From a virus, in IMG/VR virus record IMGVR_UViG_3300025711_000239, positions 1 to 64,000 of that record: a stretch of DNA of 64,000 bases; one strand, given 5' to 3'. Below are positions 7,940 to 63,223 of this stretch, piece by piece. The stretch's first letter is position 1. Each line of letters begins with the position of its first letter. Under the pieces are notes generated by a model, which was given only the letters and a program-made list of their open reading frames with translations, was not told the origin of the DNA and did not search any database. A program made the position numbers and the translations under genes.

Positions 7940-8160
7940 CTCACGCCACGATTTCTCACGCCGACCTCGTACGCCTTGAACACCTGCGTAACGCCGGGCG
8001 CTTTGTCAGCGATATGACGGCCTTTCAGGAGTGCCACGAACTCCCGCAGCCCGCTCAGCGCGAACAGCTGGCATCGCTGGTCTTTCTCATCACCGAGCAG
8101 CTGGATGAAGTGGTGACGCGCTGCCAGAACAACTGGATGAACGCGGAGGATGAATCATGA
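7936..8160 (+). CDS. Small P4-family protein of unknown function
   Basis: 74 residues ([21 protein letters not shown]...). Its ATG overlaps the preceding TGA (ATGA) and its stop overlaps the next start, so it sits in a tightly coupled operon leading to alpha. It is likely helical with no recognised motif. The position corresponds to the small ORFs between epsilon and alpha in P4. Confidence 0.7.
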
Positions 8161-8480: not shown

Positions 8481-8494
8481 GGGAGAACAGAACG

Positions 8495-10819: not shown

Positions 10820-10835
10820 AATTCATAATATTTAG

Positions 10836-10857
10836 AACCGGCGAAAGCCGGTTTTTT
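10836..10857 (+). terminator. Terminator after alpha
   Basis: AACCGGC - GAAA - GCCGGTT followed by T residues, 16 bases past the alpha stop. Confidence 0.85.
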
Positions 10858-10970
10858 GCGCTCGTTAAAGGCGCTAAATTCATCCAGCTCCATATAAAAA
10901 ATACATTCTCTGATATGTAAGAGAATTTCGCTTGCCACATTTGAAATGAGTCGAGTCCGCTATGAGCGCA

Positions 10971-11123
10971 GGCTGTGTAAAACTGTTTTGGTCGCTTAAT
11001 CTGCGTAAAACAGGGTTGAAAGCAGCGCTCATAAGTAAAATTTGGCTCAGCTAACCTGTCGATTAATTCCAGATTTTGCGTAGATGCACGCACTTCAGTA
11101 TGAGTCAGAGTTTTCACACAGCC
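10971..11123. mobile_element. 153-bp MITE-like element with terminal inverted repeats
   Basis: Ends GGCTGTGTAAAAC (10971) and GTTTTCACACAGCC (to 11123) are inverted with one extra base. Flanking 8-mers TGAGCGCA and TGAGCGAG agree at 6 of 8 positions, as expected for an aged 8-bp target duplication. It has no coding capacity. It sits in the loop of a hairpin formed by AGTCCGCT (10954) and AGCGGAC (11133). The end sequence and 8-bp duplication are reminiscent of IS256-family elements, which is only a suggestion. Confidence 0.55.
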
Positions 11124-11223
11124 TGAGCGAGGAGCGGACGCTAAAATGATGGCGACCGGGAAGTTCTGCCACATTAGACATAACACCCCGGCCACGTACG
11201 GAACGCGCGCAGCCTTAGAGCGG

Positions 11224-11624
11224 CTAGGGCAGTGCGTTCTGGTAGAGGTCCCAGCGATTGCCGTAGATGTCCTCGAATACAACCACCATCCCATACTCCT
11301 CCTGCCGCGGCTCCTGGCAGAAGTGGACGCCCTTTTCCTTCATGGCGTTGTAGTCGCGCCAGAAGTCGTTGGTCTGCAGGAACAGGAATACCCGCCCGCC
11401 GCACTGGTTCCCGATAAAACTCTCCTGCCGCTCGTTTGAGGCGCGAGCCAGGAGGAGATTACAGTCGCTTTCCGGGTTCGGTGTCACCACAACCCAGCGT
11501 TTGCCAGGCTCGGCGTGTCCTCAACCAAGGTAAAGCCCAGCTTGTCGGTGTAGTACTCGATCGCGCGGTCGTAGTCGTCGACCACTATCGCCACGTATCC
11601 CATGCATCGCTTTTGCGTTCTCAT
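11224..11624 (-). pseudogene. Frameshifted VOC/glyoxalase-fold protein
   Basis: The minus strand from 11624 reads MRTQKRCMGYVAIVVDDYD and onward in one frame, then terminates at GLW*. One base off, the reading continues as VVVTPNPESDCNLLLARAS through FEDIYGNRWDLYQNALP. Together they make one vicinal-oxygen-chelate (glyoxalase/bleomycin-resistance-like) protein broken by a single-base loss near 11500. It is GC-rich, unlike the cassettes after it, and may be host-derived cargo. A sequencing error would be the alternative explanation. Confidence 0.75.
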
Positions 11625-12082
11625 TTCTGCTCCGTCAGGTTTCAGGCACAACAGCCCGGACACCCTCTTTTAACATATAAGTGCCTGACCGCCCCCCCCC
11701 TGAGAGGCCCTCAGCGCGATTCTGGCGCTAACGAAGCGTTTCCGTCACTTTTTTCCGGCCAGAATCCTGAAAAACGGCCATGAAGATTACGGTGCATCTG
11801 AATTATTGTGCGGTAAGATTTACTCTCCACCGATTAGTGCTCGCAGATGCTGGAAACGTCCGCTTCAAATGGCACGAAGCGGACGCTAGCAAAAGGTTTG
11901 CTATGAGCGAAAACCGGAAGCAACAAAAAATGCATTTGCCGTTTCCGGTAGTTTATTGTATTTTTTAGTCGGCTTTATTCGTATGCCCGCGAAAGCAAGT
12001 TACGGATTCACTATCTCACTTTAATTTGTGAGAGGGGAATCTGCACTTGCGCAATTCTGCCTCTCACCCCACGGAGGCAAGC
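11625..12082. repeat. Intergenic stretch with a GTCCGCT hairpin
   Basis: No gene is supported here. It contains a run of nine C near 11692 and a perfect 10-bp hairpin CGTCCGCTTC (11857-11866) / GAAGCGGACG (11876-11885). Related GTCCGCT or AGCGGAC arms occur near 10954, 11133, 13514 and 23069, which suggests a dispersed small repeat family. Confidence 0.5.
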
Positions 12083-12301
12083 ATGTCTAATAATAATCTC
12101 TCAGTTCCAGCTACCCGTAAAATCAAAGGAAAAGCGCTTACACGTATCGATCAAGAACAAAAAACGATCAATTCAGGCCCATTAGGCCCAGAACGCCTTA
12201 TCATCAATATCGCACTTGATTTCATGGAAAAATATCCTGGTATGTCTTGGGAGCAGGCTTTAGTTGCCGCCATGGGCTACTGTGATCGCACTCATAGCTA
12301 A
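12083..12301 (+). CDS. Small protein paired with a Sel1-like gene
   Basis: 72 residues when started at ATG 12083, which follows CGGAGGCAAGC, a strong ribosome-binding site; an upstream ATG at 12047 lacks one. The N-terminus is basic (ATRKIKGKALTRIDQEQK) and the C-terminus helical (IINIALDFMEKYPGMSWEQALVAAMGY). There is no recognised domain. It lies 14 bases before the Sel1-like gene and is probably its operon partner, for example as a small antidote or regulator; that role is a guess from arrangement. Confidence 0.6.
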   Translation: MSNNNLSVPATRKIKGKALTRIDQEQKTINSGPLGPERLIINIALDFMEKYPGMSWEQALVAAMGYCDRTHS

Positions 12302-12315
12302 TAGTGAGGCAGATA

Positions 12316-13356
12316 ATGGCGAAACCAAACATTACGAAGATCTTTCATAATGGGCATGCATATGAGCTTGAGTATGGTGGATGGTTAAATCATAGATATG
12401 GCGAGGCTAGCAAAGCTTTAACTGAAGTATATTCAAACGATATTCATCTCAACAATACTACTATTGGTGAATATAAAGCCGCGAAAAGTGATGAATATGA
12501 GGGAGTTAAAGATAAACGTGATATGACGTTTATGAAATACCTTAGGCAATCCTTTAAGACTGAATTTGATATGGAGTGGGATGAGACAATCAAGGGAATA
12601 AAAAAAGCTATTAACGATAGCTGCATCCCTTATCTAATTCGTCAAAAAGCAGATGCATCAGTTGAAGAAAAATCTACAGCTATTTACCTAGCTGCTGCAA
12701 ACGGTCATGTTGCTTCAACCTATTTCATTGCCACGGCTATGAGTGATGGGGATGATGAGAATTGCTTATATTGGTTAACTTTAGCTCATAAGCGGGGTCA
12801 CATTGGTGCTGCATATGATATGGCAGCTTATTTCTATCGAATAGGAAACACCTTAGATGCCCTAAGGTGTTTAATCGTCTCAGCTGATGGTGGCTGCGAT
12901 TTTGCGTATTTAACTCTATTTAACATCGAATTGTTGAAAAGCATGCTGACTATTCAAGATAGCTCAAAGTTAGATGCTATGTTGAATGAGCTGGTTGATG
13001 GATCGCACAGTTCGAGTGCTCGATACTTCAAAGCTGTACGGCTTTTGGCGGGAGATACACCAACAGAGGGTGTGGCTCTTATGAAAACTTTTCGTCAAAC
13101 GCCAAAGAAAAAGCCTGCTGATAAAGACATTGATGATGTATATCGGAACCAAATGGCTTTTACTGAAGAGTTCTTGCATACGGTGCTTAGTGATATTAGT
13201 TCTCGAAAGCCCCCTTTAGTATCACTAATGGAATGTTCGCTTAAGTTTTCAGACCCTCGCCGAGCAGAAGAGGGGAAGTCATTTGCGTTAAGTTTTGAGG
13301 ATTATAGAGAGTCATTAGAAATGTTCAAAAAATATAAAACAAATGAAAGTGCATGA
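12316..13356 (+). CDS. Sel1-like repeat protein
   Basis: 346 residues from ATG 12316, preceded by GAGGC; an upstream GTG at 12304 is possible. The centre contains Sel1/TPR-like helical pairs (AIYLAAANGHVASTYFIATAM, CLYWLTLAHKRGHIGAAYDMAAYF, ALRCLIVSADGGCDFAYL). Such repeats mediate protein contacts. The N-terminal 110 residues are unlike known folds I recognise. Together with the 72-residue gene upstream it forms a two-gene AT-rich cassette behind the alpha gene, a frequent place for antiphage cargo in P4-like satellites. Function is unknown. Confidence 0.65.
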   Translation: MAKPNITKIFHNGHAYELEYGGWLNHRYGEASKALTEVYSNDIHLNNTTIGEYKAAKSDEYEGVKDKRDMTFMKYLRQSFKTEFDMEWDETIKGIKKAINDSCIPYLIRQKADASVEEKSTAIYLAAANGHVASTYFIATAMSDGDDENCLYWLTLAHKRGHIGAAYDMAAYFYRIGNTLDALRCLIVSADGGCDFAYLTLFNIELLKSMLTIQDSSKLDAMLNELVDGSHSSSARYFKAVRLLAGDTPTEGVALMKTFRQTPKKKPADKDIDDVYRNQMAFTEEFLHTVLSDISSRKPPLVSLMECSLKFSDPRRAEEGKSFALSFEDYRESLEMFKKYKTNESA

Positions 13357-13703
13357 AAATAGGTAAGCAATCGATTCTTTTACGATTAGTACGGAGATCC
13401 AAACGGTTCACTCTGGTGCAAGCCGCTTTATGACGCTCTCTGTAGTAAATCCGAGTTCTTCGTTTCATGGCAACGTCCCCCTTGATTAAGGATAGCGTTG
13501 CATCGACCCATTGAACTCACACCGAGGAGCGGACGTTCGCAACTTGAATAATCGTATGGCTAACTTTGAGGTGTCTTAATCAACGGGGAACTGGTCAAGT
13601 GAGGAGGGAAAGGAACATTTTCGCGAAGTGAATTCTGCCTGCGGTTTGTTAGGCGCAGGCGGAATCTTATGTAATATTTTAACTTTTTGCAGTTGTTAAT
13701 CAC
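13357..13703. mobile_element. Intergenic remnant of an IS30-family end
   Basis: Positions 13441-13521 match 19073-19153 over 81 bp with three mismatches. The latter spans the start of an IS30 transposase. Here only the first nine or so codons (minus strand, MKRRTRI) survive. It marks a former IS30 copy and supplies a direct repeat around the 13.5-19.1 kb segment. The remainder of the interval shows no gene. Confidence 0.7.
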
Positions 13704-15239
13704 TCAGCTATATATGAATTTTAATGTTCTTTTTACATAGCTTTTAGCTTGTTCTATATCGTTGGAAACCTCCCCCCCATGATGTTGAGCATTTCCAAAA
13801 TCTTTGAGGTTGTATAATTCTTCAATATGCTTTTTCATTGAAAAATAATTTTTATTTTCGTCGCTTTCATTAATTATATCGAGCATTGCACCAAGCATAA
13901 TTTCATTATTAAAGTCAGTGGGGAAGCGGGTTTTCAAATAATCTTCCAATACTATGCGCATAGCCGGTAAAACCTCATGCAATTTATCATTGCATTCTCC
14001 TGATACAAAGGAATGTAATAATTTAATTCTTGCAACATAACTACTTTCAACAACCTTTTCATTCCATAATGAAATGCTACTAGTGTTATTATCGAAATTT
14101 TTACTTATGCTGTATTGCTGTGCAGAAGATAGCGATTTATCAGTCTTCATGAGATGTAAGAATTTTGCATCATGAGATAATATAAAAATCTGGCGTGTTT
14201 TTTTCTTTAATTCTTTTATTATTTCTTTTGTTGCATGTCTTCTGGATTCATCAAAGCTTGACATGGGGTCATCGAATACAACTATTGTTTTTTTAATGTT
14301 TTTAGAAGCGTCAAGTTTTGATAGGAAGAAAGCTAAAGAAATTGCTCTCTTATCTGCATCGCTCAGCAACGTATCAAAGTACGGCAGCCCATGTTGAATT
14401 GTATTGGATGCAAAAATGTCCACTTCAAAGTCATTCATGCCTATTGAATATTTTAATCTTTTGGAAAGATCACTTGAGAAATTTGATGATCCTAACTTCA
14501 TAACTTTGAAGTTAGTACCGAATTTACTGAGGTAGTAATTTATGCTGGCTTGATGTAATGTCAATTCATCATCGATAATGCTAATTAACTTTTCTTTTTT
14601 AATTCTTATGGATTCAATTAATGATTTTTTCTTGTTAAGAAGTTTTTTTGATTCTTCAAGAATTTCATTCTGATCCTTATTTTTCACGATAGAAGCTAAA
14701 TCATCTGGGTCTGATAATAGAAACATACTCTTAGTTTTTCCTGGGGACAAAGATAAATGAGAAATACATTCCGATAGTTTTTTATTTACTCCGCTTAGTG
14801 AGAGGTCGATTACTTCCAGTTCTTTAAAGACTTCTTTTCCTTCTTCATTTGCAAAAAGAAGTGAGAATAAACGCTCTCTTTGCTCTTTAAATATAGCATT
14901 ACCTGAGTAAACATTGTCATTGATAAAGGATGAGTCATAAACGGCCAGGCTCAGATCATTTAAATCCCAGCCTTTCTTATGATTAAATTTGAGAGTTTTT
15001 CCATTTTCTAACTCCAAGATGACTTGTGGCTCGGATTTTGATGATGGCAATCTTGCGTGTTTCATTATGAACCGAGGGCTGTTTCCTTCTAAAGATTTAA
15101 AAATAGATGCTAAGGTTGATTTTCCACCTCCATTATCACTATAAATCAAGTTGATGTCAGAAAATATTGGGAACTTAGAAGGTGTAGAGAAGTTAGCAAA
15201 CCTTCCAATATCTTTTATATATTTTATACTCTTTATCAT
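13704..15239 (-). CDS. SMC/ABC-type AAA ATPase, RloC/PrrC-like class (defence candidate)
   Basis: 511 residues from ATG 15239, which has GGAGG five bases upstream; a start at 15260 is less likely. The ATPase has a P-loop near 34-41 (SDNGGGKS, with Ser for the usual first Gly), a central coiled-coil insert, an ABC signature-like LSDADKRAISLAFFLSKL, Walker B and D-loop TIVVFDDPMSSFD, and switch His in IFILSHDAKFLHLM. This is the architecture of AAA_13/RloC/PrrC-type proteins. The C-terminal 130 residues (FGNAQHHGGEVSNDIEQAKSY after a helical region) may be the effector, but no anticodon-nuclease triad is evident to me. AT-rich and monocistronic. An antiphage role is inferred. Confidence 0.75.
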   Translation of the reverse strand: MIKSIKYIKDIGRFANFSTPSKFPIFSDINLIYSDNGGGKSTLASIFKSLEGNSPRFIMKHARLPSSKSEPQVILELENGKTLKFNHKKGWDLNDLSLAVYDSSFINDNVYSGNAIFKEQRERLFSLLFANEEGKEVFKELEVIDLSLSGVNKKLSECISHLSLSPGKTKSMFLLSDPDDLASIVKNKDQNEILEESKKLLNKKKSLIESIRIKKEKLISIIDDELTLHQASINYYLSKFGTNFKVMKLGSSNFSSDLSKRLKYSIGMNDFEVDIFASNTIQHGLPYFDTLLSDADKRAISLAFFLSKLDASKNIKKTIVVFDDPMSSFDESRRHATKEIIKELKKKTRQIFILSHDAKFLHLMKTDKSLSSAQQYSISKNFDNNTSSISLWNEKVVESSYVARIKLLHSFVSGECNDKLHEVLPAMRIVLEDYLKTRFPTDFNNEIMLGAMLDIINESDENKNYFSMKKHIEELYNLKDFGNAQHHGGEVSNDIEQAKSYVKRTLKFIYS

Positions 15240-15684
15240 ACTTCCTCCGTAGGAACTCAATGTAGAAAAATAAAGTTTAATTAAGTGACATCATATAGAA
15301 ACACTAATCATATATCTATTTGACGCATATATAATTCACTAAAAAAATGTCGTAGATATTAATATAACACTTTAAGGCAACTTTACAGCACATGTAAAGT
15401 TGAAACTTCCGGAAAAATAGATGAATTGAGCAGAAATTAAAACAGTATATGTTGAGTTTTGGTTTTATATGAAAAATTTTATAGTAATTAAGAAGACAAC
15501 CTCCTGATTGCTAAAAGCGCCGGTTCGACCGGAGAACTGCTGACAGCTCTTACCCAGTTACGCAAGTCCCTTAGATATTAAGCTTATTTTATCCATCAGG
15601 GATGAAACTGTCACCAATCATGCTGAATGCAAAATATTTGAACGGCAGTTACTGACACAGAGCTGCTGTTACAGCCCTCACAAA

Positions 15685-16290
15685 TTAAACTTCAATAGAT
15701 CCAGATATCTCCATGGCATCATCCACTTCAATACCGAGATAACGGACTGTACTTTCGAGTTTTTTGTGACCTAACAATAGCTGGATCACTCGAAGATTCT
15801 TCGTTTTTTTATAGATCAGATATGGCTTGGTTTTCGCGTAGAATACGTACTTTACAGGGTCTCGTCGAGACCCTGCTCATCAATCCATCCATGAAAATTA
15901 CGGTTATATTGCCTAGTTGAGATATGCCGTGAAGAACCGACGCGGGACTGGAACAGATAGTCGCTACTACGTAGATGAGCCATTTTTATCCACGCTGCTA
16001 CAGCCTCTCTGGTTCCCTTAGTCAGTTCAAACTGAACGGGCTTCCCGTTTTTTGCAGCAGCACTGTCGCTCTGCCCTAAACAGAGTGCCCATAGGCCACA
16101 TCAGAAACTTTTAACTTAACCAGATCACAGGCCCGAAGTTAACTGTCCAGAGCCATGTTAAACAGAGCTAAATCGCGCACTTTTCCTTCCAGCTTAAGTC
16201 TGATACGGAATCCCCAGATATGAGAGATTTGAAGAGGCCGTTTCTGGCCTAAGATACGGCACTTGTTCCAAGGGATGTTGTCATGCTCTA
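15685..16290 (-). pseudogene. Decayed tyrosine recombinase
   Basis: Minus-strand translation pieces match a single integrase type. 16290 to 16130 gives HDNIPWNKCRILGQKRP and RDLALFNMALDS followed by an in-frame TAA, then LRACDLVKLKVSDVAYGH. Near 15800-15685, NLRVIQLLLGHKKLESTV and RYLGIEVDDAMEISGSIEV end at TAA. The HxxR block between them is lost and frames shift. It is a dead island integrase. The preceding 15240-15684 stretch is AT-rich with no gene. Confidence 0.8.
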
Positions 16291-16409
16291 TTTCCTTTGG
16301 GTTAGGAGATGTGATTATGGTTGTCCCATATGAGCGAGAAGCAGATAATGGAGTGCTTATAAAAGTTTAATACTTGTCTCAGTCCGAGATTTTGGTAAGT
16401 ATTGATTCA

Positions 16410-17087
16410 CTATAGTTTTCCGCCAGCATAAAGGGAGGCCCATATAGCAGCACCAGCAAAGATAAGAACTAAAAATCTCTCAACCGTTTTGATAACTTTA
16501 TGTCTATATGTTGACTTGAATCTAAAGTCATTAAAAATAAGGTATTGCCTATAAATATAATTACTCATGTTGGAAGCAGAATGCTGTGAAGTGGATGTAC
16601 AATACCTAAAATATACAGAAAAATGTTTTTTTATGTGTTTGGGTGTTATTTGCGATGGGTTTTGATACTTGCCTATTATTATTTCAGTTTCATTGATTTT
16701 CCCAGCATTAGATTGATATGGCGCAACAAACACAAGAACATCACCGGATGGTCCCTGCGAATACCATAATTGAGCATTCCTTTCGAACGCAACTTCTAAG
16801 CTTTCGTTGTCTGGGGATGTTATGTTAAACCCCAAGAATCTGAGCCCAGTAAAAACATGAGTCGAATTAATATGTTGTGAACTAATAAGATTAGATGATT
16901 TGATTGGTTCATCATCTTTTGATCTGCTAATGTAAAGGCTCCCAAAGATATCGGTACTATGAGAGTCAGCATTTAAAATTTCAAACTCCCTTTGAATTCT
17001 ATCGTCCATAAACCTCCAATTTATGCGTTTAAAATATGCATTTAAACTATCTCTTCTTATTCTCTCTGCAGCGGACTTTAATTTCAA
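16410..17087 (-). CDS. Unknown protein with one C-terminal membrane segment
   Basis: 225 residues with no family I recognise. It is a soluble N-terminal domain of about 195 residues with a single hydrophobic segment near the end (FLVLIFAGAAIWASLYAGG), suggesting a tail-anchored or single-pass protein. It is AT-rich, flanked by the dead recombinase and the IS3 element, and has no operon partner. In this kind of accessory patchwork it may be a leftover defence or toxin component, but nothing in the sequence proves it. Confidence 0.5.
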   Translation of the reverse strand: MKLKSAAERIRRDSLNAYFKRINWRFMDDRIQREFEILNADSHSTDIFGSLYISRSKDDEPIKSSNLISSQHINSTHVFTGLRFLGFNITSPDNESLEVAFERNAQLWYSQGPSGDVLVFVAPYQSNAGKINETEIIIGKYQNPSQITPKHIKKHFSVYFRYCTSTSQHSASNMSNYIYRQYLIFNDFRFKSTYRHKVIKTVERFLVLIFAGAAIWASLYAGGKL

Positions 17088-17354
17088 TGTAAATCCTTAA
17101 ATATAAAAATAGTTCATCATATATTCATGGGTAAACTAGGAAGTTGTTATGCTGATGAGCATAACTGGCAATAAAATCAAAAAAGTTCCAAGCATACTAC
17201 ATCAACAAACATCGATGCGCTCACATTCAGTATGAGAAACTTAGTTACGTCTGCTAACCTGCTCCCCCTTAAACTAATGCAGCATGATGTTAGGAACTTC
17301 CGCTTTTGACCCTGACCCCGAATATGATCCAGACATAATCAGGAATAACCGGCT

Positions 17355-18209
17355 TCAGGTTGGTTGCTTATTCTGGCAACCGGCAGATTTTTCGGCAAAT
17401 TCGGATGGGGTCATCCAGCCCAGCGCAGAATGGGGACGACTCTGGTTATAGTGTATTCGCCAGGCTTCGATTTTGCACCGGGCATCCTCCATCAACATAA
17501 ACCAGTTCTCGTTCAGGCATTCCTGCCGCAGCCTGCCGTTGAATGATTCCACCGTGGCGTTATCCGTGGGCGTACCCGGTCGCGAAAAGTCAATCCGGAT
17601 ATCATGTTCGTATAACCATTTATCCAGCATTTTTCCCGCAAATTCAGAACCATTATCAGTTTTCAGTAGCTGTGGCAGCGGTCGCCTCAGCGCTATGTTA
17701 TTCAGCATCTCAGCCACTTCTGAGGACCGCAGGTTCTGGCCCATGCAGATCCCCAGACATTCGCGCGTGTAGAGATCGATTACCGTCAGCAGGCGAAGCC
17801 GGCGACCGTCAAACAACGCATCGGAGACAAAATCCATCCCCCATACATGATTGGGATACAACCCCTGCGGCTGGGGCTGCCGTTTCAGCGCAGATTTAAT
17901 ACGGCGGGGGCGCTTTAGCCGCAGCGATAATCCCTGCTCGCGGTAAAGCCGGTAAATGCGCTTGTGATTATCGCGCCAGCCTTCCCGTTTCAGCATGACG
18001 TGGACCCTGCGGTAGCAGTAGTGGACGCGGGTTTCGGTTATCTCCCTGATGCGCAGCCGCAGCGCGCTGTCGTCTGCCGCAACGGAGCGGTAGCGGAACG
18101 AACTGCGGCTGACCTGCAGCGCAAAGCAGACCTGTCTCTCACTGGCACCGTAGCGGGTCTGTTAGTCCCTGACCCACTCGCGCAGGCGTGCCAGCGTCAG
18201 CTCTTTTTT
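17355..18209 (-). pseudogene. IS3-family transposase OrfB, nonsense-broken
   Basis: The rve/DDE integrase domain is readable with its acidic triad in GMDFVSD, LLKTDNGSEF and NATVESFNGRLRQECLN. The frame from the slippery A6G at about 18204-18209 reads KKELTLARLREWVRD and then a TAA at about 18161-18163. It reopens at QTRYGASERQVCFALQ and runs to the stop at 17355. Only this one stop separates it from a full OrfB. Confidence 0.8.
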
Positions 18210-18469
18210 GCCAGCACGTCCTGCAGCGTGGCCTTGTCGAGGCTCAGATCGGCAACCAGCCTCTTCAGGCGAAGGTTTTCCTCCTCGAGCTGCCGCATAT
18301 GTTTCAGTTCTGAAGGCGAAATCCCACTGTACTTTTTGCGCCAAGTGTAGAACGTGGCGTCGGAGATGCTCAGCTTGCGGCAGACTTCCGGTACGGGCGT
18401 ACCCAGCTCAGCCTGCTTCAGGGCAAAGACAATCTGCTCTTCGTTAAATCGTGACTTTTTCATCGGCAC
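18197..18469 (-). CDS. IS3-family transposase OrfA
   Basis: 90-residue helix-turn-helix and leucine-zipper subunit (KKSRFNEEQIVFALKQAE, ISDATFYTWRKKYSG, LEEENLRLKRLVADLSLDK). It belongs to the IS407-like group of IS3. Its end contains AAAAAAG, where minus-one slippage would give OrfAB. It is intact, but the OrfB partner is interrupted. Confidence 0.85.
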   Translation of the reverse strand: MPMKKSRFNEEQIVFALKQAELGTPVPEVCRKLSISDATFYTWRKKYSGISPSELKHMRQLEEENLRLKRLVADLSLDKATLQDVLAKKS

Positions 18470-18543
18470 AACCTCCGCTCAGGGGAGTGAATATCATGCC
18501 GGAATTCTGTTTCTGAATGGAGCAGGATTTCGTGTCAGGGTCA

Positions 18544-19100
18544 TTTTTTTAATGCACCCCGGGTTTGTATAAAAAGCGTTTTATATATCGTTTCGTGTGG
18601 CACATGCATTTCCTGATTATCCGGATAACAGCGTTTCAGCCAACCGGCGATTTGTTCCGGCGACCAGTCCTGATGCATCTTCTCTGCGATGATTCTACAC
18701 TTTGGGTCTTTCAATTAGCTTGCAAGGTTTTAGTCTCAGAGCATTTTCCCACGCAGCAGTATCCGCTTTTGATGCACGGTATTGATTTGCACCAGCGTGC
18801 CTCTTTATTTCCCGGCTAATCGTTGAGGGGGCTCTCGATAGTTTGTTTGCGATCGCCCTGATGCTGATTTTGCTACCAGCGCTCTGGATATTTCCTCTCT
18901 TTCATCAAGTGAAAGCGCTAACGGATGCCGCTTTCGGACAGGGGGCGGTATCCACCAGTCTGGTGGATAGTGGGCATAATAGAAGAATGATATCTGTCGA
19001 ACATTCTGGCGATATCATGCAGGGAATCACCTTGCTTATATCTGTCCCAGATAATCGCCTTCTGCTCTGGCGTGTAGTTAATCCGAGTTCTTCGTTTCAT
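18544..19100 (-). pseudogene. Truncated, frameshifted IS30-family transposase
   Basis: The N-terminus MKRRTRINYTPEQKAIIWDR starts at 19100. Subsequent pieces in other frames read LSLDEREEISRALVAKSA, MHQDWSPEQIAGWLKRCYP and TIYKTLFIQTRGALKK, which ends exactly at the IS3 boundary. The DDE catalytic part is missing. The N-terminal 81 bp recur at 13441-13521. Confidence 0.85.
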
Positions 19101-19398
19101 GGCAACGCCCCCCTTGATTAAGGATAGCGTTGCATCGACCCGTTGAACTCACAACGAAAAGCAGACATTCTTTTCAGGATAACTCTCACTCCTCTTTTGA
19201 CTTATAGGATGTCAGTTATTTCGGCTATTTGTAGTTCAATGCAGTTGATTGAGTAAGGAATAGATCTGACTCGTTATGCAGGCCCTAGTACCAAAGCTTA
19301 AACCTGTAGACAAATTGCACAACCAGAATGTATAACGAATTGGGATTATTCTTATTTGCTGGCTGGTATCTGGCACCCTACCCACGGCTCTCACCTGG

Positions 19399-20349
19399 AT
19401 GACAAATATGGAAATTGAGAAAAACACGATTGATGATGTTATGCGTGCTGTGTTTGAAAATATCCTGTCAGATGGTGTTCCTGTTGAAACAACGCGGGGT
19501 CCGACAAAAGAGATTCTGGGTACACACATCATTTTGAGCAATCCGATTTGCCGGATTAGCAGAACAGAATCCAGAGGTAAAATATTCACCTGTCTGGGTG
19601 AGTTGATGTGGTACCTATCAGGCAGTGACGAGGTTGAATCTATTCGCTATTACATCTCAAAATACCAGGATTCTGCAGAAAGTGATGGCACAATTAATGG
19701 CGCTTACGGACCTCGTCTCTTTGGTACCAAGAATGAAATTAACCAGATTGAGAATGTCATCCGGCTTTTAAAAAAACGCAACACATCTAGGCGAGCAGCC
19801 ATACAGCTTTTTGACGCAAACGATATAGCCCATCCCTTCGTTGAAGTCCCCTGTACTGTCGGGCTCCAGTTTGCGATTAGGAATGATTCCCTCGATATGT
19901 TCACATTCATGCGCTCTAACGATGCGCGAGCAGGACTGGTTCACGACATATTTGCATTCACGATGCTTCAGGAAATGATTGCAAAAACCCTCGGTTTAAA
20001 TTTGGGCGTTTATCGCCATTATGCGGCAAGTCTGCACATCTATACCGAGGATATTCCCCTCATCGAAGCTGCGCTTAAAGAGGGTTATGCGCCATCTGCA
20101 CCAGTTATGGTGGCAATGCCCACAGAGGATATAAATCACTACTTATGCATCATTGTTGATGCAGAGAAACGCATCCGAGAGGGCGACATTCCAGACATTG
20201 ATACGCTAAGCCTGAGTGAATACTGGAAAGATGTCCTTCGTATGCTGGCGATATTCAGATGCAAAAAAGACAAGGACTTGCCAGCTGCTCGGTCCATTGC
20301 CGGGAAATTGCAAAATCAGTCATACAAAATTTATCTTGAGTGGTTGTGA
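19399..20349 (+). CDS. Thymidylate synthase-family pyrimidine (hydroxy)methyltransferase
   Basis: 316-residue ThyA-fold enzyme. By alignment to E. coli ThyA it retains Arg21 (TTRGPT), the nucleophile as Cys152 (VEVPCTV), the phosphate-binding Arg172-Ser173 and Asp175 (FMRSNDAR), and His213/Tyr215 (SLHIYTED). The base-reading residue Asn177 is replaced by Asp183 (VHDIFAF). In T4 dCMP hydroxymethylase and related enzymes this Asn-to-Asp change selects cytosine over uracil, so a (d)CMP methylase or hydroxymethylase is predicted rather than a thymidylate maker. The partner gene follows after 8 bases. Intergenic 19101-19398 shows no other gene. A weak ribosome site leaves 19408 as an alternative start. 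Confidence 0.82.
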   Translation: MTNMEIEKNTIDDVMRAVFENILSDGVPVETTRGPTKEILGTHIILSNPICRISRTESRGKIFTCLGELMWYLSGSDEVESIRYYISKYQDSAESDGTINGAYGPRLFGTKNEINQIENVIRLLKKRNTSRRAAIQLFDANDIAHPFVEVPCTVGLQFAIRNDSLDMFTFMRSNDARAGLVHDIFAFTMLQEMIAKTLGLNLGVYRHYAASLHIYTEDIPLIEAALKEGYAPSAPVMVAMPTEDINHYLCIIVDAEKRIREGDIPDIDTLSLSEYWKDVLRMLAIFRCKKDKDLPAARSIAGKLQNQSYKIYLEWL

Positions 20350-20357
20350 GGGAGAAA

Positions 20358-21296
20358 ATGAAACGACAGGATCTAATTGATGAAATTTCAGAGCAGCTCG
20401 AATCGTTCAGTACACACGAAATCCCGCTCAGGGGATTAGATACCCCCGACAAAATCACAACGCTCGCCGCACAGATACTCGACAGCAAGCGTCGTATTGA
20501 GTACGTCGGAGCCATTGGTAGAAATAAGATATCCCCGCTTCGGGGAAATCCCCACAGCGATATTTTTGATCCGCTACGAGCTGCATGGTTGCATGTTTAT
20601 GAAGGGAATGTAGATGAGGCGTGCTGGCTTATTTTCCTGTCCACCCACTTTGGCAAACATCTCAAATATGGTTGGCAATTGTGCGCCGACATTTATGGTG
20701 GACTCGGTGGCGATGTATGGACTTGGGAGAAAGTGGTTGCGGAAGTGGACACCTTTCACGCCTGGTATGAGGGCTGCTATCGCCAGATGCTGGCAGACGG
20801 TCAGAAAAGAAGGTTTGGGAACCATAGAAAGTACGAATCCCTCAAACCGGACAGCAAGCGCCCCCTTCCACGCGTTATCAGCTCATACGTAGCGTGGGTA
20901 GGAAACGTAGGTAGTCACGAAGCGCGATTTGCTGAAGCCAAAGCCGCATCTAGTAGTCAGGAAGAGTACTTTGATATTCTTTACCGAAGCATGAGGGCTG
21001 TTTTGTCATTTGGGCGGGCTGGAAGGTTCGACTTTCTGACAATGCTCATCAAGTTCTGCATTATTGATGCCAAGCCGGGAACGCTGTATCTGAACGGGGC
21101 AACAGGACCTCTGGATGGCGCAAACCTTCTATTTTACGGTGAAGCGAGAAATGCGGCCAATTATAAGGTATTAGACGATCTTCTGGCGAGGCTCAGCGCC
21201 TTCATGGACATGGGACTGCTTGAAATGCAAATTCTTGAGGATGCTCTTTGCAACTGGCAGAAATCACCCTCTCGCCACGTTTACTTTGGCGGATGA
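20358..21296 (+). CDS. Probable HMUDK-helical / thymine pyrophosphorylase-clade protein
   Basis: 312 residues from ATG 20358, chosen for GGGAG three bases upstream; ATG 20340 lacks a site. The C-terminal block FDFLTMLIKFCIIDAKPG and YLNGATGPLDGANLLFYG resembles the helical domain called alpha-glutamyl/putrescinyl thymine pyrophosphorylase clade 3 or HMUDK_hel, which in phages works beside thymidylate synthase homologues in hypermodified base synthesis. It is co-transcribed with the ThyA-like gene. That association supports a nucleotide or DNA-base modification step. The family call comes from memory of the motif and needs a profile search. It is not related to the convergent toxin-antitoxin-like pair except by position. 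Confidence 0.55.
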   Translation: MKRQDLIDEISEQLESFSTHEIPLRGLDTPDKITTLAAQILDSKRRIEYVGAIGRNKISPLRGNPHSDIFDPLRAAWLHVYEGNVDEACWLIFLSTHFGKHLKYGWQLCADIYGGLGGDVWTWEKVVAEVDTFHAWYEGCYRQMLADGQKRRFGNHRKYESLKPDSKRPLPRVISSYVAWVGNVGSHEARFAEAKAASSSQEEYFDILYRSMRAVLSFGRAGRFDFLTMLIKFCIIDAKPGTLYLNGATGPLDGANLLFYGEARNAANYKVLDDLLARLSAFMDMGLLEMQILEDALCNWQKSPSRHVYFGG

Positions 21297-21298
21297 TT

Positions 21299-22381
21299 TC
21301 AGGACAGATCTTCACGGTTATATTTGACTTTGAATTTGGCAAAATGATCAAAGGGAATTTTTTGGGCGTGCTGTAACTGCCCCAGCACTATCCCTTTTGA
21401 TACACCAATTTTCCGAGCAAATTTAATAATATTTTTCCAATTTCGCCCACTCAGCTTGTCAAACTCTGCACGGTATGCTGGGGGAATCAGGACGTTGCTG
21501 GAAAACTCGTTTGCTTCCTGTTCTTCTTTTTCAGAAAGGCCACTCATTCCTTCTATGCGGTGCTGTTCACAGTTGTGCAGAACCAGATGGCCAATCTCAT
21601 GGAACAACGTAAACCAAAAATGATCGTCTCTGAGATACCGAAAACTCATTATTAGTGTCGCTTTGCCAGACTCAAAAAAACAGGTAGCGCCGCTTGCTGG
21701 ACAACCTGTTGGCGTTGGCAGGATCACAAGCGCTACACCAGCGTCAGCGAGTATGCTGCGTATCGCAGGAAGAAATACTTTGGGATCAGCTTCAAGAGAA
21801 TGTTTTCTTAAAGCTTCTAGGCTGCCTTTAAGTATTTCCTTATCCCATGCATAAGTTCTCTGTTTTCGCGAAATATATTCAGCTTTCTTGAGCCAAGTTA
21901 TTACGGCCATTTCTTCCGTTCTGAAAGCTTCAGATTTTCTGAAAGCTATAGCAGTCTGTTTACTTTTATAATAATCAAACCATTCAGGTACAGATGAAAC
22001 GCCGAAAAAACTCAGGCAATACTCTACTTTTTTATTACCACTCAGGCCCTTCGGGATCCAACCCAGTTTACTCATATCTGACGTAGGCAGAGACTGAACC
22101 CATTCATTATTTTGGCGAATGATGGCATCTTTATGTTGGCGATATTTATTTTCACGACTGAGCCAGAAAGTCGTGCTGACATTGAAGAGAGATTCAAGTT
22201 TGTTGGCAATCTTCTCAGTGAGAATAAGCTCACCAGAAATCAACTCACGACTTTTAATCATGGAAAGGCCAACTCTTTTACTGAGCTCTTCTTCGTTGAA
22301 ACCAAGTTCATCCATGAGGTCTATTATGGTATCTCCGGGGGCTGACACCCAATCCGTGTTAAATCCGTTATCAGAAACCAT
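21299..22381 (-). CDS. HigA-like HTH protein with ImmA/IrrE metallopeptidase domain
   Basis: 360 residues. The N-terminal HTH (residues about 15-80, PGDTIIDLMDELGFNEEELS then LISGELILTEKIANKLESLF and TTFWLSRENKYR) is the HigA/VapA type. The C-terminal domain carries the zinc-peptidase motif HEIGHLVLH at about 260-268 and a downstream EQEANEFSSNVLIPP helix supplying the third ligand. It is typical of antitoxin-like or repressor-cleaving proteins. It overlaps the toxin-like gene upstream by 11 bases and ends 2 bases from the convergent modification gene. It likely represses its own operon. Confidence 0.85.
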   Translation of the reverse strand: MVSDNGFNTDWVSAPGDTIIDLMDELGFNEEELSKRVGLSMIKSRELISGELILTEKIANKLESLFNVSTTFWLSRENKYRQHKDAIIRQNNEWVQSLPTSDMSKLGWIPKGLSGNKKVEYCLSFFGVSSVPEWFDYYKSKQTAIAFRKSEAFRTEEMAVITWLKKAEYISRKQRTYAWDKEILKGSLEALRKHSLEADPKVFLPAIRSILADAGVALVILPTPTGCPASGATCFFESGKATLIMSFRYLRDDHFWFTLFHEIGHLVLHNCEQHRIEGMSGLSEKEEQEANEFSSNVLIPPAYRAEFDKLSGRNWKNIIKFARKIGVSKGIVLGQLQHAQKIPFDHFAKFKVKYNREDLS

Positions 22382-22823
22382 AATCTTCGCCTATATGAAC
22401 CAATTTCAACCGAGTTACCCGACCCCAATCAAGTGAATTGTCTGCCTGACGGGGTGGTTTGAGATGACCATTTACAAAGTACATCTTAACGCCTTCGCTA
22501 AGGTTAATTGTAACGTAATCGCATCCATTTTCGCATAAAAACTCTGTTTTAAGAAAACTTGGAAGCTCAGCTATCGATGCTGAAGACCAGATATCAGCAC
22601 ACCGCACGCGCAGTTTTGCAGCTACGGCATCACCGAACAAATTTATCCCTGCTTCTTTAAACTCAACTGAATCTCTGAGTTCGGAACTGTCACAAAAAAT
22701 CTGCAATGGGTTACCAACGCTGAGCGATTTATCAGAGAATATTATATTGTAATGTATAAAAAATCCACGGTTTAACGGGCAGGTACATGAGGATGTCAAT
22801 GAAATTTCAATAATTACGCTCAC
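22371..22823 (-). CDS. RelE/HigB-superfamily toxin-like protein
   Basis: 150 residues if begun at GTG 22823. The recognisable part starts near NIIFSDKSLS and ends LSEGVKMYFVNGHLKPPRQ and WGRVTRLKLVHIGEDYG, which resembles proteins often labelled 'killer suppression protein HigA' that actually have the RelE/HigB toxin fold. No ATG lies in frame; homologues would begin about 30 codons later, where only ATA/ATT-type codons exist, so the start is uncertain and the gene may be slightly damaged. It is paired by overlap with the HTH-ImmA gene. Confidence 0.6.
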   Translation of the reverse strand: MSVIIEISLTSSCTCPLNRGFFIHYNIIFSDKSLSVGNPLQIFCDSSELRDSVEFKEAGINLFGDAVAAKLRVRCADIWSSASIAELPSFLKTEFLCENGCDYVTINLSEGVKMYFVNGHLKPPRQADNSLDWGRVTRLKLVHIGEDYGF

Positions 22824-23175
22824 CGCTTAATTGAAACTGTCATCTAGGAACAGTGAACAAAGCTTATAACTAAAATCTCCACATTTTTCCGCTGTAGCTC
22901 TCTGGTCCTACCCACGAAATGCGAACTCACTTTGTTGCGGCCAATATTGATCTTCATTCGGCATTCTATTCTTTATCATCCATTTGGAACGCACCATGAC
23001 TAGTAAGCAGCGCATAAAGTACTAAGGGTACCTGACCAACTCTCCGTTGATTCACTCATAACGCTGTTAGCAATGTCCGCTTTTCGCTCAAAGCAGACTG
23101 TCAGATTTAATGATGTGCAGCCAGTGAAAACCGTCAGCTCAAGTCTGAGCTGACGCATATTATGAACCAGTAAAA
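22824..23175 (-). terminator. Intergenic stretch with operon-end hairpin
   Basis: It contains a perfect 10-bp hairpin CGTCAGCTCA (23132-23141) / TGAGCTGACG (23146-23155). On the minus strand a short T-run follows, which fits the end of the long phage operon whose last gene stops at 23176. No gene is seen in 22824-23131. A GTCCGCT-type repeat is near 23069. Confidence 0.6.
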
Positions 23176-59847: not shown

Positions 59848-60172
59848 TGATTAGCTCCGGCTTGCCACCAGCAAAGTCGCGTATGCGCCCGCGCAGCCAC
59901 GCCATATCGGGCAGAGAAAGCGTCTGGCCTGCTGGCAGCGGCTCCATTTCTGACTCTATTCCGCATAACAGACGGAATACCCAGCGCAGATCGTCATTAC
60001 CTTCATAGGCGCGGTATGCCGCCAGGTCAGCGCGGAATATCTCGTCAAGACGGATGGTGTAGTCGCGGTTGTCTTCGTGGAATGAGGCGGATCGCTTGAT
60101 CACTTCCTGATGGAAGAGGCTGCGTAGCACCACGTCACTAATTGAGCGATCGTCAAGGCGGTTATAACTCAC
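59840..60172 (-). CDS. Small baseplate-operon protein
   Basis: 110 residues, helical (YNRLDDRSISDVVLRSLFHQ, DEIFRADLAAYRAYEGNDDL, WLRGRIRDFAGGKPELI). It overlaps the SWIM gene by eight bases and the first gene by four. No recognised motif. A tail or packaging role is inferred from the operon. Confidence 0.6.
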   Translation of the reverse strand: MSYNRLDDRSISDVVLRSLFHQEVIKRSASFHEDNRDYTIRLDEIFRADLAAYRAYEGNDDLRWVFRLLCGIESEMEPLPAGQTLSLPDMAWLRGRIRDFAGGKPELISG

Positions 60173-60822
60173 AGGATACGTTCCTCGTCACTGATTCGCT
60201 TGCCGGTCAGCGACTCCGGCACGGCTTCAGCGGCTTTGATTTTTTCATAGCCGATGATGCGTTTAAGCGTGTCCATAAGGGTCGGCTCCTGCTCTGCGGT
60301 CGCGGCGGTCATGGCATTGATGTAGTCCGCTGATGCCACGTTGTTGTAGCCCACAGCGAAGCAGCACAGAATGGTTAGTACCTGCTCCGGGCGTATCTCG
60401 CGCCAGTTGATCCGATAGACCTCTTCACCGCTGGCGTTGTATTCCACCTCAACGATGGAGTCTGGAATCTCAAATGCGCCCTTGTTCTCTGCTGGCAGCG
60501 CAATGTTGTCCTGCAGCAGGAGCTCGTTGTAACGCTCGATGCCAATGAGTACCGCTGCACGCCCGTCGCTTCCCCGCGTTTTTAGTGAGATATGGTTGCC
60601 GCCTACTTCGTTGGCCACTTTGCCGGTTGCTTCATCCACCAGCACCTTGAAGCCCTGTTTACGCAGTGCCTCAACGAAGGGGGCGAGTTTGGCCAGCTGC
60701 TTTCGCATGCCCTTTGGCAGCGTCTGCGGCTTTGACATAACGAGCGTGTGCTCTTCGTAAATGGCGGTGATCGCCATCGGCTGATTAGTGGAAAGACTGA
60801 TTACTGCGATTTTCTGTTTCAC
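60169..60822 (-). CDS. First gene of the baseplate operon, unidentified
   Basis: 217 residues: a beta-rich first half (IAVISLSTNQPMAITAIYEE, LVDEATGKVANEVGGNHISL), then IEVEYN-like IVEVEYNASGEEVYRINWRE and a helical tail. It lies directly behind the leader hairpin (60846-60864) and promoter-like motif (60959). No homologue is identified; it may be a late regulatory or maturation protein. Confidence 0.55.
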   Translation of the reverse strand: MKQKIAVISLSTNQPMAITAIYEEHTLVMSKPQTLPKGMRKQLAKLAPFVEALRKQGFKVLVDEATGKVANEVGGNHISLKTRGSDGRAAVLIGIERYNELLLQDNIALPAENKGAFEIPDSIVEVEYNASGEEVYRINWREIRPEQVLTILCCFAVGYNNVASADYINAMTAATAEQEPTLMDTLKRIIGYEKIKAAEAVPESLTGKRISDEERIL

Positions 60823-60974: not shown

Positions 60975-61270
60975 AAAGTAGTGTCAACGAATTTTTTTGC
61001 TGGCTAACATTTATCCACCTGAAAAAAATTTTCAGTTTTTTTAAGCACCTTTTAATTAAAGGTTCCAAAAAAGACAAACTCGCATCAGCCTTGAATTGAA
61101 GGGCTTTTACATAGTTATTTTTTTATTAAAAATTAACTATTTTTTTAGCAAACTATCCTAAATATTAAGAAACACACAGCTTTCAAGTGGTTGATTAAAG
61201 ATTATTAAACGTTGAATATAAAAATGGTCAGAAGATATAGCTTTTAAACTTAACTCTACGAGGTTTTAAA

Positions 61271-62053
61271 ATGGCTGAACAACCGCAATTGGATGTTACT
61301 GCTTCCGCTCCGAACTGGGGTCCATCGTATAACTTTAATGCTGTGCAAGATCCTAATTCATTACCTGCTGGAGATCCAAAAGCGCGTACTGATTTAATTC
61401 GTGCATATTATGACGGTACAGCTACGGCTAAATGGCTGCAAGACTGCCTGAACTATCTCGATAAAGATATGAACGTAGTTAAGGCTTTACTATGCCGCGC
61501 TGCTTACGCCGACTATCAGGAAGCCCATGGAGGTGTTGGCTACTATGGCTCAATCAAAAATGCGCCTGCTGACTGGCCACCATCTAGCCAAAACATGTTG
61601 ACAGACAAAGCTTTTGCGCCGCTAGCCGCGCTTTATCACTATGCTTTTGGAGACGGCTCAGCTATGGCTGTCGATCTCGGTCAGTTGAGTTTTAACTTTG
61701 ATCGTAATAATTTACCTCCAATAAATAATATTTTGAGCGGCGTTCACACTGGCGAATTTAATATTAATCAAAGCATCGGTTATGACTTTGCCAATAGCGA
61801 TCGCTGGGCGTGGTCTTATTTGGGTCGGGTAAGTTTGACTTTGTCTGGAACACTTAAAGTTGATCCAGCTGGTAATTGGAACTTTGACGGTCGCGTTAAT
61901 GGTGTGTCAGATCGTTATGATGCAAACCCAGATGCGAAACGAGGACAAATTGGCGAGTTACTGACACAAATTTTGGCGCGAATTCCAAATCACACTGAAT
62001 ATGAAATTTTTATGCAGGGTGAGCATCGAATTCAAATTAGCGGTACCCGGTAA
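61271..62053 (+). CDS. Colicin M-like bacteriocin (lipid II phosphatase fold)
   Basis: 260 residues, colicin M size. The C-terminal half aligns well with the ColM catalytic domain: YLGRVSLTLSGTLKVDPAGN, the core DRYDANPDAKRGQIGE and the ending YEIFMQGEHRIQISGTR. ColM Asp226, Tyr228, Asp229, Asn231 and Arg236 correspond to Asp214, Tyr216, Asp217, Asn219 and Arg224, but catalytic His235 is Lys223. The middle HYAFGDGSAMAVDLGQLSFN matches the translocation region. The N-terminal QLDVTA could be a TonB box. It would act in the periplasm on lipid II. The convergent gene resembles its immunity protein. The His-to-Lys change leaves enzyme activity in question. Confidence 0.88.
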   Translation: MAEQPQLDVTASAPNWGPSYNFNAVQDPNSLPAGDPKARTDLIRAYYDGTATAKWLQDCLNYLDKDMNVVKALLCRAAYADYQEAHGGVGYYGSIKNAPADWPPSSQNMLTDKAFAPLAALYHYAFGDGSAMAVDLGQLSFNFDRNNLPPINNILSGVHTGEFNINQSIGYDFANSDRWAWSYLGRVSLTLSGTLKVDPAGNWNFDGRVNGVSDRYDANPDAKRGQIGELLTQILARIPNHTEYEIFMQGEHRIQISGTR

Positions 62054-62060
62054 AATATCT

Positions 62061-62082
62061 AAAGGGGGCGTTTGCCCCCTTT
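62061..62082. terminator. Bidirectional terminator between bacteriocin and immunity genes
   Basis: AAAGGGGGC - GTTT - GCCCCCTTT. It closes the bacteriocin gene 8 bases past its stop and, read in reverse, the convergent immunity gene. Confidence 0.85.
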
Positions 62083-62083
62083 A

Positions 62084-62434
62084 TTAATTACCGTACTCAA
62101 TATCGGTTAGGTCAGAACATCGGGGCATGCCGGAGTAGGGGACGCCAGGCACTGCGCTAACAGTAAACGGTATCATTGCGATAGTAGGTCCTATCTGAAC
62201 ACCGCTCATATCCACACTCACATCCTTTCTAGCTAGATGATACTTCCCGAAAATACTGTTATCAGGACGCAATACATCCGCTATTACAGCATCAGCTGCT
62301 ATTGCCGGCTGAAGTGTTTTGCACGCTTCAGTGTCCGCCGCGATCTCATTTTTCATGTGTTGCTGAAGTGAAAAGTATCCGATCACCCCTATAGCAAAAA
62401 CTCCAATGGCAACTTTGCTAACCTTATTCATCAA
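62084..62434 (-). CDS. Colicin M immunity (Cmi)-like periplasmic protein
   Basis: 116 residues; Cmi has 117. An N-terminal anchor (VAIGVFAIGVIGYFSL) leads to a periplasmic domain with two Cys (ACKTLQ and PRCSD), as in Cmi, where they form a disulfide. The closing region IPFTVSAVPGVPYSGMPRCS and DIEYGN parallels Cmi's VPF...YYGMYHC...VEYAND. It is convergent to the bacteriocin, the same layout as cma/cmi on ColBM plasmids. It would protect the producer from lipid II degradation. GATAAT repeats at 62459 lie just upstream. Confidence 0.8.
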   Translation of the reverse strand: MMNKVSKVAIGVFAIGVIGYFSLQQHMKNEIAADTEACKTLQPAIAADAVIADVLRPDNSIFGKYHLARKDVSVDMSGVQIGPTIAMIPFTVSAVPGVPYSGMPRCSDLTDIEYGN

Positions 62435-62458
62435 ATATCCTATTCACTCAGATGTGAG

Positions 62459-62482
62459 AATGATAATCGTTTAATGATAATC
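62459..62482 (-). promoter_or_regulatory. Fur-box-like repeats upstream of the immunity gene
   Basis: AATGATAATC occurs twice (62459-62468 and 62473-62482), four bases apart. Fur recognises arrays of GATAAT-type hexamers, so iron control is plausible. The site lies 25 bases before the immunity start at 62434. Confidence 0.45.
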
Positions 62483-62554
62483 TTACATGTATTTGATGTG
62501 GCAACCAACCCAAAGCTGGTGATTAATATTGCTGCTAACCATATCAATTATTAT

Positions 62555-63223
62555 TCAAACACACTCAGTATCCGCCAGTAAGTGTTCGATGCTTGCCATA
62601 GTGTAAGCCTTGATCATCAATTCTTTTTCCGTGCCGTTATGCCGGGAGAATTCTGCTTTACCGCCTGTAATGCCGTCTGCGTGTACCGGCACCAGCCAGT
62701 TGAACTCAGCCCGGATTGCTGCCGGTGCAGCGTGCTGGTGATGATTATCGCAAAGGGGGAGCTGTAAAAGGTGCGCGCCGGGTTTTGTGCGGCCCTCGAT
62801 GTGATGCAGGTTGATTACTGGGGATTCCTTTCCGTGTTGTAAGCAGGCAATGCATGGAAGTTTACCCAGTGCATCCATAACAACGCGCTCGACTGCAGTC
62901 GGTGCGCGCCCTTTAAGGCCTCTTCCGGACGCGCTGGCGCGTGTTTGCCGCTTCGCTGCAACTGGAGCTGGCTTTTTCTCTCTTAGGCGCTCAGAGGCGC
63001 TTACAGCGCGTTTTACTGCTTTAGCTTTTTGCTCTGCAATCCACTCCGGGGAATTACGCTTTTCAATCTGCCTGGCAAGCATCCTGTTACTGCTGGCTTT
63101 CTGCTTTGCGTACTGCTGCTGGCGAAACTCCGGGTCTGCCAGTTTTGCTGCATGTCTTTCGCGTTGGCGTTGCTGTACTTTTTCCTGCTTTTCCCGTGCG
63201 GCCTGAAAATCTGCGCTTTCCAT
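62555..63223 (-). CDS. ref: P1 Ref-like RecA-dependent endonuclease
   Basis: 222 residues. The C-terminal HNH-like domain matches P1 Ref closely: GLKGRAPTAVERVVMDALGK, LPCIACLQHG, NLHHIEGRTKPGAHLLQLPL, CDNHHQHAAPAAIRAEFNWL and VPVHADGITGGKAEF. The N-terminal 90 residues are basic and disordered (QRQRERHAAKLADPEFRQQQ), the part that in Ref binds DNA. Ref cuts RecA-bound D-loops and stimulates recombination. It sits next to the replicon, supporting a P1-like origin for the region. Confidence 0.92.
   Translation of the reverse strand: MESADFQAAREKQEKVQQRQRERHAAKLADPEFRQQQYAKQKASSNRMLARQIEKRNSPEWIAEQKAKAVKRAVSASERLREKKPAPVAAKRQTRASASGRGLKGRAPTAVERVVMDALGKLPCIACLQHGKESPVINLHHIEGRTKPGAHLLQLPLCDNHHQHAAPAAIRAEFNWLVPVHADGITGGKAEFSRHNGTEKELMIKAYTMASIEHLLADTECV

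What the first reader, a model, noticed from the sequence alone, without database searches (positions are those of the whole stretch)
61271..62434. Colicin M-like bacteriocin with Lys in place of catalytic His, plus convergent Cmi-like immunity gene, on a phage-plasmid
The C-terminal domain aligns along its length with colicin M and keeps the DxYDxN core and Arg, but ColM His235 is Lys223. The convergent 116-residue anchored protein with two Cys and a YSGMPRC / IEYGN ending parallels Cmi. A phage-plasmid carrying a complete peptidoglycan-targeting bacteriocin pair is unusual, and the substituted residue suggests either a new catalytic variant or an inactive decoy retained with its immunity gene.
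Basis: partly seen in the sequence, partly recalled or inferred. Interest (0 to 1): 0.8.

Follow-up and report, generated by a model that had tools for sequence, protein, structure and literature searches.

The report
His-less colicin M on a phage-plasmid
A P1-like phage-plasmid of Pantoea carries a colicin M-type bacteria-killing protein and its protective partner; the protein belongs to a small lineage, also found on another kind of phage-plasmid, that lacks the histidine thought essential for its enzyme activity yet shows every sign of being kept in working order.

Summary
The ORF at 61271-62053 is a colicin M (ColM) homologue (PF14859, E=4e-25). Codon 61937-61939 encodes Lys where ColM has His235. 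A convergent, anchored, two-Cys protein at 62084-62431 is a remote Cmi/YebF-type immunity protein. The host is a P1-like phage-plasmid of Pantoea agglomerans, where PGAP already annotates "lipid II-degrading bacteriocin".

Lys is not a read error: it is present in three other Pantoea-type copies and in a 52%-identical Rahnella homologue. Nor is it a conserved new catalytic residue: in the same clade, two SSU5-like phage-plasmids have Asn and Ser there. Across 36 distinct ColM domains the site is H 21, F 6, K 4, W 2, Y, N and S one each, with at least four changes on a tree. Published Burkholderia ColMs lack this His and still kill.

What is new is a monophyletic His-less clade, mostly on phage-plasmids. 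In all of it, another active-site residue (pectocin M2 Asn198) is Arg, and a new His252 appears. All members keep the DxYDxN...R core and the immunity gene, and the catalytic domain is under purifying selection. This argues against a decoy. Most likely it is an active lipid II-hydrolysing bacteriocin cassette. Activity is untested.

The parts
60980..62600 (.). Cargo cassette: ColM-type toxin plus convergent immunity gene, inserted between the P1-like genes mat and ref
   Evidence: P. eucalypti pEuc3 aligns up to 60979 and again from 62604 with only about 69 bp between; other P1-like elements carry other genes in the same slot
61271..62053 (+). ColM-type bacteriocin gene, 260 aa
   Evidence: PF14859 E 4.3e-25; PDB relatives; PGAP name 'lipid II-degrading bacteriocin' on near-identical plasmids
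61286..61303 (+). Probable TonB box (QLDVTA), at the position of DTLIVEA / ETLTVHA in relatives
   Evidence: Position in alignments; inference, degenerate match
61598..62050 (+). ColM catalytic domain
   Evidence: Pfam match to residues 110-260
61826..61828 (+). Arg186 at the active-site Asn198 position of pectocin M2; Arg in all clade members, never in the 30 others (N 27, T 2, H 1)
   Evidence: Ungapped alignment; survey; Asn198 role from PMC11452297
61910..61942 (+). Catalytic motif D214-R-Y216-D217-A-N219-P-D-A-K223-R224
61937..61939 (+). Lys223, equivalent to ColM His235
62024..62026 (+). His252, clade-specific invariant His (ColM Ile263 position); possible but unproven replacement base
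62060..62083 (.). GC-rich inverted repeat between the convergent genes, terminator-like (T-run on the - strand side)
62084..62431 (-). Immunity gene (115 aa from ATG; 116 aa from the TTG at 62434): N-terminal anchor, Cys38, Cys106, C-terminal Glu113-Tyr114, equivalent to Cmi C31, C107, E113, Y114
   Evidence: roles of the Cmi residues from PMC8469651
62456..62488 (-). Fur-box-like AT-rich repeats (TGATAATC twice) upstream of the immunity gene, partly conserved in the two SSU5-like homologues
   Evidence: function inferred only
60169..60822 (-). mat-like maturation control gene, left neighbour
62555..63223 (-). ref, RecA-filament endonuclease, right neighbour

Best explanation
A lysogenic-conversion cassette on a P1-like phage-plasmid encodes a functional ColM-type bacteriocin. 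The toxin is probably released at lysis of a few lysogens, enters related bacteria through a TonB-dependent outer-membrane receptor, and cleaves lipid II in the periplasm, while the membrane-anchored Cmi-like partner protects lysogens. It belongs to a clade that dispenses with His235. The metal-binding Asp and the Tyr, Asp, Asn and Arg of the core are kept, and the active site is rebuilt with Arg at the Asn198 position. Shown: homology, residue identities, pairing, selection, location. Inferred: killing, lipid II hydrolysis, receptor, immunity, release.
For: Pfam and PDB homology. All clade members keep D214, Y216, D217, N219, R224, E229 and T232. Each has the same convergent immunity gene. 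Synonymous sites are saturated while pN in the catalytic domain is 0.15-0.36. The site is naturally variable: 15 of 36 distinct domains are non-His, with at least 4 changes on the tree, and non-His ColMs elsewhere also sit beside YebF-type immunity genes (L013 Tyr, L016 Phe). Burkhocins M1 and M2 lack the His and kill (PMC4661593). The immunity protein is remotely homologous to Cmi: hhalign 94.8%, periplasmic part 33.8 against at most 15.8 in 100 shuffles, with both essential Cys and the E-Y ending. Bacteriocin pairs on telomere phage-plasmids are proven weapons (PMC12042878).
Against: ColM H235A keeps only 1.4% activity and loses killing (PMC8469651). No enzyme or killing assay is known to me for this clade. 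The Pfam YebF model does not hit the immunity protein. The AlphaFold models are poor (pLDDT 65 and 43) and Foldseek found nothing. The TonB box is degenerate and the receptor unknown.
Confidence: 0.7

Rival explanations
1. Catalytically dead ColM that still blocks peptidoglycan synthesis by binding and sequestering lipid II; immunity is kept because binding alone is toxic.
For: Pectocin M1 D222A has no lipid II hydrolysis but lyses E. coli from the periplasm (PMC5187517). ColM H235A has 1.4% activity. PmnH shows that degenerate ColM domains can be inactive (PMC5821083, PMC8469651).
Against: The clade keeps the metal-binding Asp and the Arg that the presumed dead versions (PmnH, PmdH) lose; a mere binder would not need the full catalytic set.
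Confidence: 0.15
2. Inactive decoy or decaying pseudotoxin, with the immunity gene retained for defence against related bacteriocins.
For: Missing His; orphan immunity homologues are common on Klebsiella plasmids and orphan ColM immunity genes are described in Burkholderia and Pseudomonas (PMC4661593, PMC5277000).
Against: Toxin ORFs are intact in all seven clade copies found, the catalytic domain is under purifying selection, and the few differences between near-identical copies lie outside the motif.
Confidence: 0.1
3. Lys223 is itself a new general acid/base replacing His235.
For: Lys in the window and in the 52%-identical Rahnella homologue.
Against: Asn and Ser at the same site in the two related phage-plasmid toxins, which share the other clade-specific residues.
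Confidence: 0.05

Closest known systems
Colicin M / pectocin M / syringacin M / pyocin M (ColM-alpha, PF14859)
   Same: Catalytic domain and DxYDxN...R core, likely TonB box, about 260-aa size, convergent downstream immunity gene as in E. coli cma-cmi
   Different: No His235 (K/N/S); Arg at the Asn198 position; clade-specific His252; central domain not recognisably similar in sequence; carried on phage-plasmids
Cmi (ColM immunity, YebF-type) and PeiB (Pantoea-Erwinia immunity type B)
   Same: N-terminal anchor, two Cys, C-terminal E-Y; same convergent placement as cmi; same topology and absence of a YebF Pfam hit as described for PeiB
   Different: Only remote similarity to Cmi (about 13-20% identity); whether it is PeiB itself could not be checked because the PeiB sequences are not given in the accessible text
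Burkhocins M1/M2 (ColM-beta, Burkholderia)
   Same: ColM domain without the His that still kills
   Different: Different clade, signal peptide, different immunity types, BurM2 motif one residue shorter
Telocins of telomere phage-plasmids (Klebsiella)
   Same: Bacteriocin plus immunity cassette in a variable locus of a phage-plasmid, some attacking peptidoglycan
   Different: Other toxin families (pore formers and other peptidoglycan-degrading bacteriocins); N15-like linear phage-plasmids

Membership tests
ColM bacteriocins (PF14859) | Significant match to the ColM catalytic domain | tested here: met
   E 4.3e-25, 88.8 bits against a cut-off of 27
ColM bacteriocins (PF14859) | Asp226, Tyr228, Asp229, Arg236 of the DxYDx5HR motif | tested here: met
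   D214, Y216, D217, R224
ColM bacteriocins (PF14859) | His235 | tested here: not met
   K223. Not a strict membership criterion: the site is non-His in 15 of 36 distinct domains and the His is absent from active burkhocins (PMC4661593)
ColM bacteriocins (PF14859) | N-terminal TonB box | tested here: inconclusive
   QLDVTA at the right position, degenerate relative to DTLIV
ColM bacteriocins (PF14859) | Lipid II hydrolysis and killing | not testable with these tools
   Needs an enzyme and a spot assay
Cmi-type immunity | Pfam YebF (PF13995) signature | tested here: not met
   No hit for the window protein or any close relative; the Cmi-type control set scores E 1e-3 to 1e-15
Cmi-type immunity | Profile-level homology to Cmi | tested here: met
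   hhalign 94.8%, E 5.5e-8; without the anchor, score 33.8 against a maximum of 15.8 in 100 column shuffles
Cmi-type immunity | Membrane anchor, two Cys, essential C-terminal E113-Y114 | tested here: met
   Cys38, Cys106, E113, Y114 aligned
Cmi-type immunity | Protects against its toxin | not testable with these tools
   Needs a protection assay
P1-like phage-plasmid | RepB-family initiator, partition gene, terminase, portal, capsid, baseplate, mat, ref, circular plasmid relatives | tested here: met
   98-99% identical to circular plasmid NZ_CP134741 over about 44 kb of the window

The most novel reading that the evidence does not exclude
A His-independent ColM lineage whose catalytic centre has been rebuilt (Asn198 to Arg, His235 free to vary, a new His252), giving lipid II cleavage by altered chemistry or on an altered substrate, spread mainly by two unrelated families of phage-plasmids that exchange toxin-immunity alleles.
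Probability: 0.35. Interest if true: 0.6.

Novelty: new variant of a known kind. Interest (0 to 1): 0.42.

Why it matters
The ColM mechanism is unresolved, and His235 is listed as essential from alanine mutants of one enzyme. A natural, selected clade without it, with a coordinated change at the neighbouring Asn198 position, makes the role of this histidine directly testable. The finding also adds P1-like and SSU5-like phage-plasmids to the vehicles that spread bacteriocin-immunity pairs.

Tried and rejected
Scans of genome contigs with the single protein and a two-sequence profile found no relatives, so prevalence in cellular genomes is not measured. AlphaFold on 2-3 sequence alignments gave poor models, and Foldseek found nothing usable. 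A first family-wide DNA pattern was one codon short and found nothing. No LexA box near the toxin, so classical SOS control is not supported. PADLOC: no hit. The idea that the Lys is a sequencing error was rejected by independent copies. The weak HGF hit of the immunity protein in the PDB is chance.

Full report
Observation. The ORF at 61271-62053 (+) and the convergent ORF at 62084-62434 (-) exist as described. The first is a ColM homologue: PF14859 E 4.3e-25, with the best solved relatives pectocin M2, syringacin M, pectocin M1 and ColM. The match is ungapped from residue 157 to about 239, so window position + 12 = pectocin M2 position. D214, Y216, D217, N219 and R224 correspond to D226, Y228, D229, N231 and R236, and K223 to His235. 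PGAP names the gene 'lipid II-degrading bacteriocin' on two P. agglomerans plasmids that are 99.7% and 97.8% identical over the region.

Host element. The window lies in an IMG/VR virus record of 118,644 bp. From about 19.3 kb onward it is 98-99% identical to the circular 94-kb plasmid pFC61912-B_D, which carries a RepB-family initiator, a ParM/StbA partition gene, terminase, portal, capsid, baseplate, late promoter activator, lysis, mat and ref genes: a P1-like phage-plasmid. The cassette sits between mat and ref. In P. eucalypti pEuc3 the two are directly adjacent, with breakpoints near 60,980 and 62,600. In other P1-like elements the slot holds a HEPN-domain gene, an HTH/RelE-like toxin-antitoxin pair or an unknown gene. 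It is therefore a variable cargo site.

The Lys. The codon is the same in three other copies, so it is not a read error. A Rahnella aquatilis plasmid carries a 52%-identical toxin with its own 51%-identical immunity partner, convergent as here, and also has Lys. But a second phage-plasmid, IMGVR_UViG_3300013669_000001, related to Salmonella phage SSU5, carries a 54%-identical toxin with Asn, and a third, IMGVR_UViG_3300014631_000001, has Ser. All have the convergent immunity gene. The two SSU5-like contigs are 92-96% identical around the locus but strongly diverged within it, so toxin-immunity alleles appear to be exchanged at one site.

Family survey. A DNA pattern for DxYDxN-x4-R-x4-E-x2-T, free at the His position, was run over 2.9 million viral contigs. 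It was combined with the plasmid and phage homologues and gave 36 distinct ColM domains: H 21, F 6, K 4, W 2, Y 1, N 1, S 1. On a tree built without that column, the H/non-H state changes at least four times. The pattern imposes the other core residues, so their invariance in the pattern-derived set is not a result, but position 235 was left free. The domains were made non-redundant only at exact identity, so the counts include close relatives. Literature agrees. The motif is described as degenerate (PMC5821083), and burkhocins M1 and M2 lack the His and kill (PMC4661593). ColM H235A nevertheless keeps only 1.4% activity and no killing (PMC8469651), so in ColM itself the residue matters.

What distinguishes the clade. 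The window, Rahnella and two SSU5-like toxins form one lineage (100/100 support, long branch). Ten positions are invariant in it and nearly or wholly absent elsewhere. The most telling is R186, at pectocin M2 Asn198; in the 30 others this is N 27, T 2, H 1. Asn198 is described as a conserved active-site residue that, with Asp226, hydrogen-bonds a water and is approached by His235 and Arg236 (PMC11452297). H252 is also clade-specific. My inference is that loss of the His went with a rearranged active site, and that Lys223 in particular is incidental. I could not place H252 in space because the models were poor.

Active or decoy? Between clade members synonymous sites are saturated (pS 0.78-0.91) while pN in the catalytic domain is 0.15-0.36. 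Within Pantoea the differences are few, none in the motif. With the full set of other core residues and an intact immunity gene in each lineage, this argues for a functional toxin. Lysis without hydrolysis, as reported for pectocin M1 D222A (PMC5187517), remains a real rival.

Immunity protein. No Pfam or PHROGs family matches, and NCBIfam gives only a chance-level hit far below its cut-off. Profile comparison with Cmi/YebF-type proteins gives 94.8% probability. With the anchor removed the score is 33.8, against at most 15.8 in 100 column-shuffled controls. Cys38, Cys106, Glu113 and Tyr114 align with the Cmi residues C31, C107, E113 and Y114, all reported essential in Cmi. It fits the description of PeiB, a Pantoea-Erwinia immunity protein with Cmi topology but no YebF signature (PMC5821083), though identity with PeiB could not be checked. 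Upstream lies a Fur-box-like repeat, partly conserved in the SSU5-like homologues; iron control is inferred only.

Context on phage-plasmids. ColM genes with ordinary His also occur on Klebsiella SSU5-like elements and, in tandem, on another P1-like element. In Pseudomonas they are known cargo of prophages and tailocin clusters (PMC5277000). Telocins of telomere phage-plasmids are experimentally proven bacteriocin-immunity cassettes (PMC12042878). I found no paper describing ColM on P1-like or SSU5-like phage-plasmids in the held library, which does not cover most subscription journals.

Verdict. Real, correctly recognised, and a new variant of a known kind. The Lys as such is not the news. 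The His-less, Arg186-bearing clade on phage-plasmids is moderately interesting because it makes the role of His235 testable.

Noticed in passing
L002 3974-4351 (NZ_CP114855) and about 550 Klebsiella plasmid records: A 125-aa homologue of the immunity protein (33% identity, E 5e-10, both Cys and EY kept) is widespread on Klebsiella plasmids, mostly large conjugative ones; only 8 Klebsiella plasmid records hold a detectable ColM toxin, so nearly all copies are orphans. Possibly an overlooked protection against ColM-type bacteriocins.
   Followed up: partly
L024 1534-3906 (IMGVR_UViG_3300042922_000661): Another P1-like element carries two tandem ColM genes (both with His) and a divergent Cmi-like gene, like the tandem described in Pantoea ananatis Sd-1.
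   Followed up: partly
L016 (CP122658): A 2.8-kb E. coli plasmid has three annotated genes: a helix-turn-helix gene, a ColM gene with Phe at position 235 and a YebF-family immunity gene.
   Followed up: partly
window 1-19293 and G000:C1 112634-118644: The left 19 kb does not match the P1-like plasmid and resembles bacterial chromosome and IS sequences; 3.8 kb at 19293-23086 recurs as a 99% direct repeat at 112634-116430, followed by a 654-bp inverted match. The record may be an integrated element or a chimeric assembly.
   Followed up: partly
window 62456-62488: Two TGATAATC repeats resembling a Fur box upstream of the immunity gene; AATGATAATCGTTT is shared with L020 and nearly with L057.
   Followed up: partly
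CP060164 (L012): A plasmid labelled Acinetobacter venetianus gives the same match score and coverage as one from Pantoea sp. PSNIH1 and looks like a Pantoea P1-like element; possible contamination or mislabelling.
   Followed up: no
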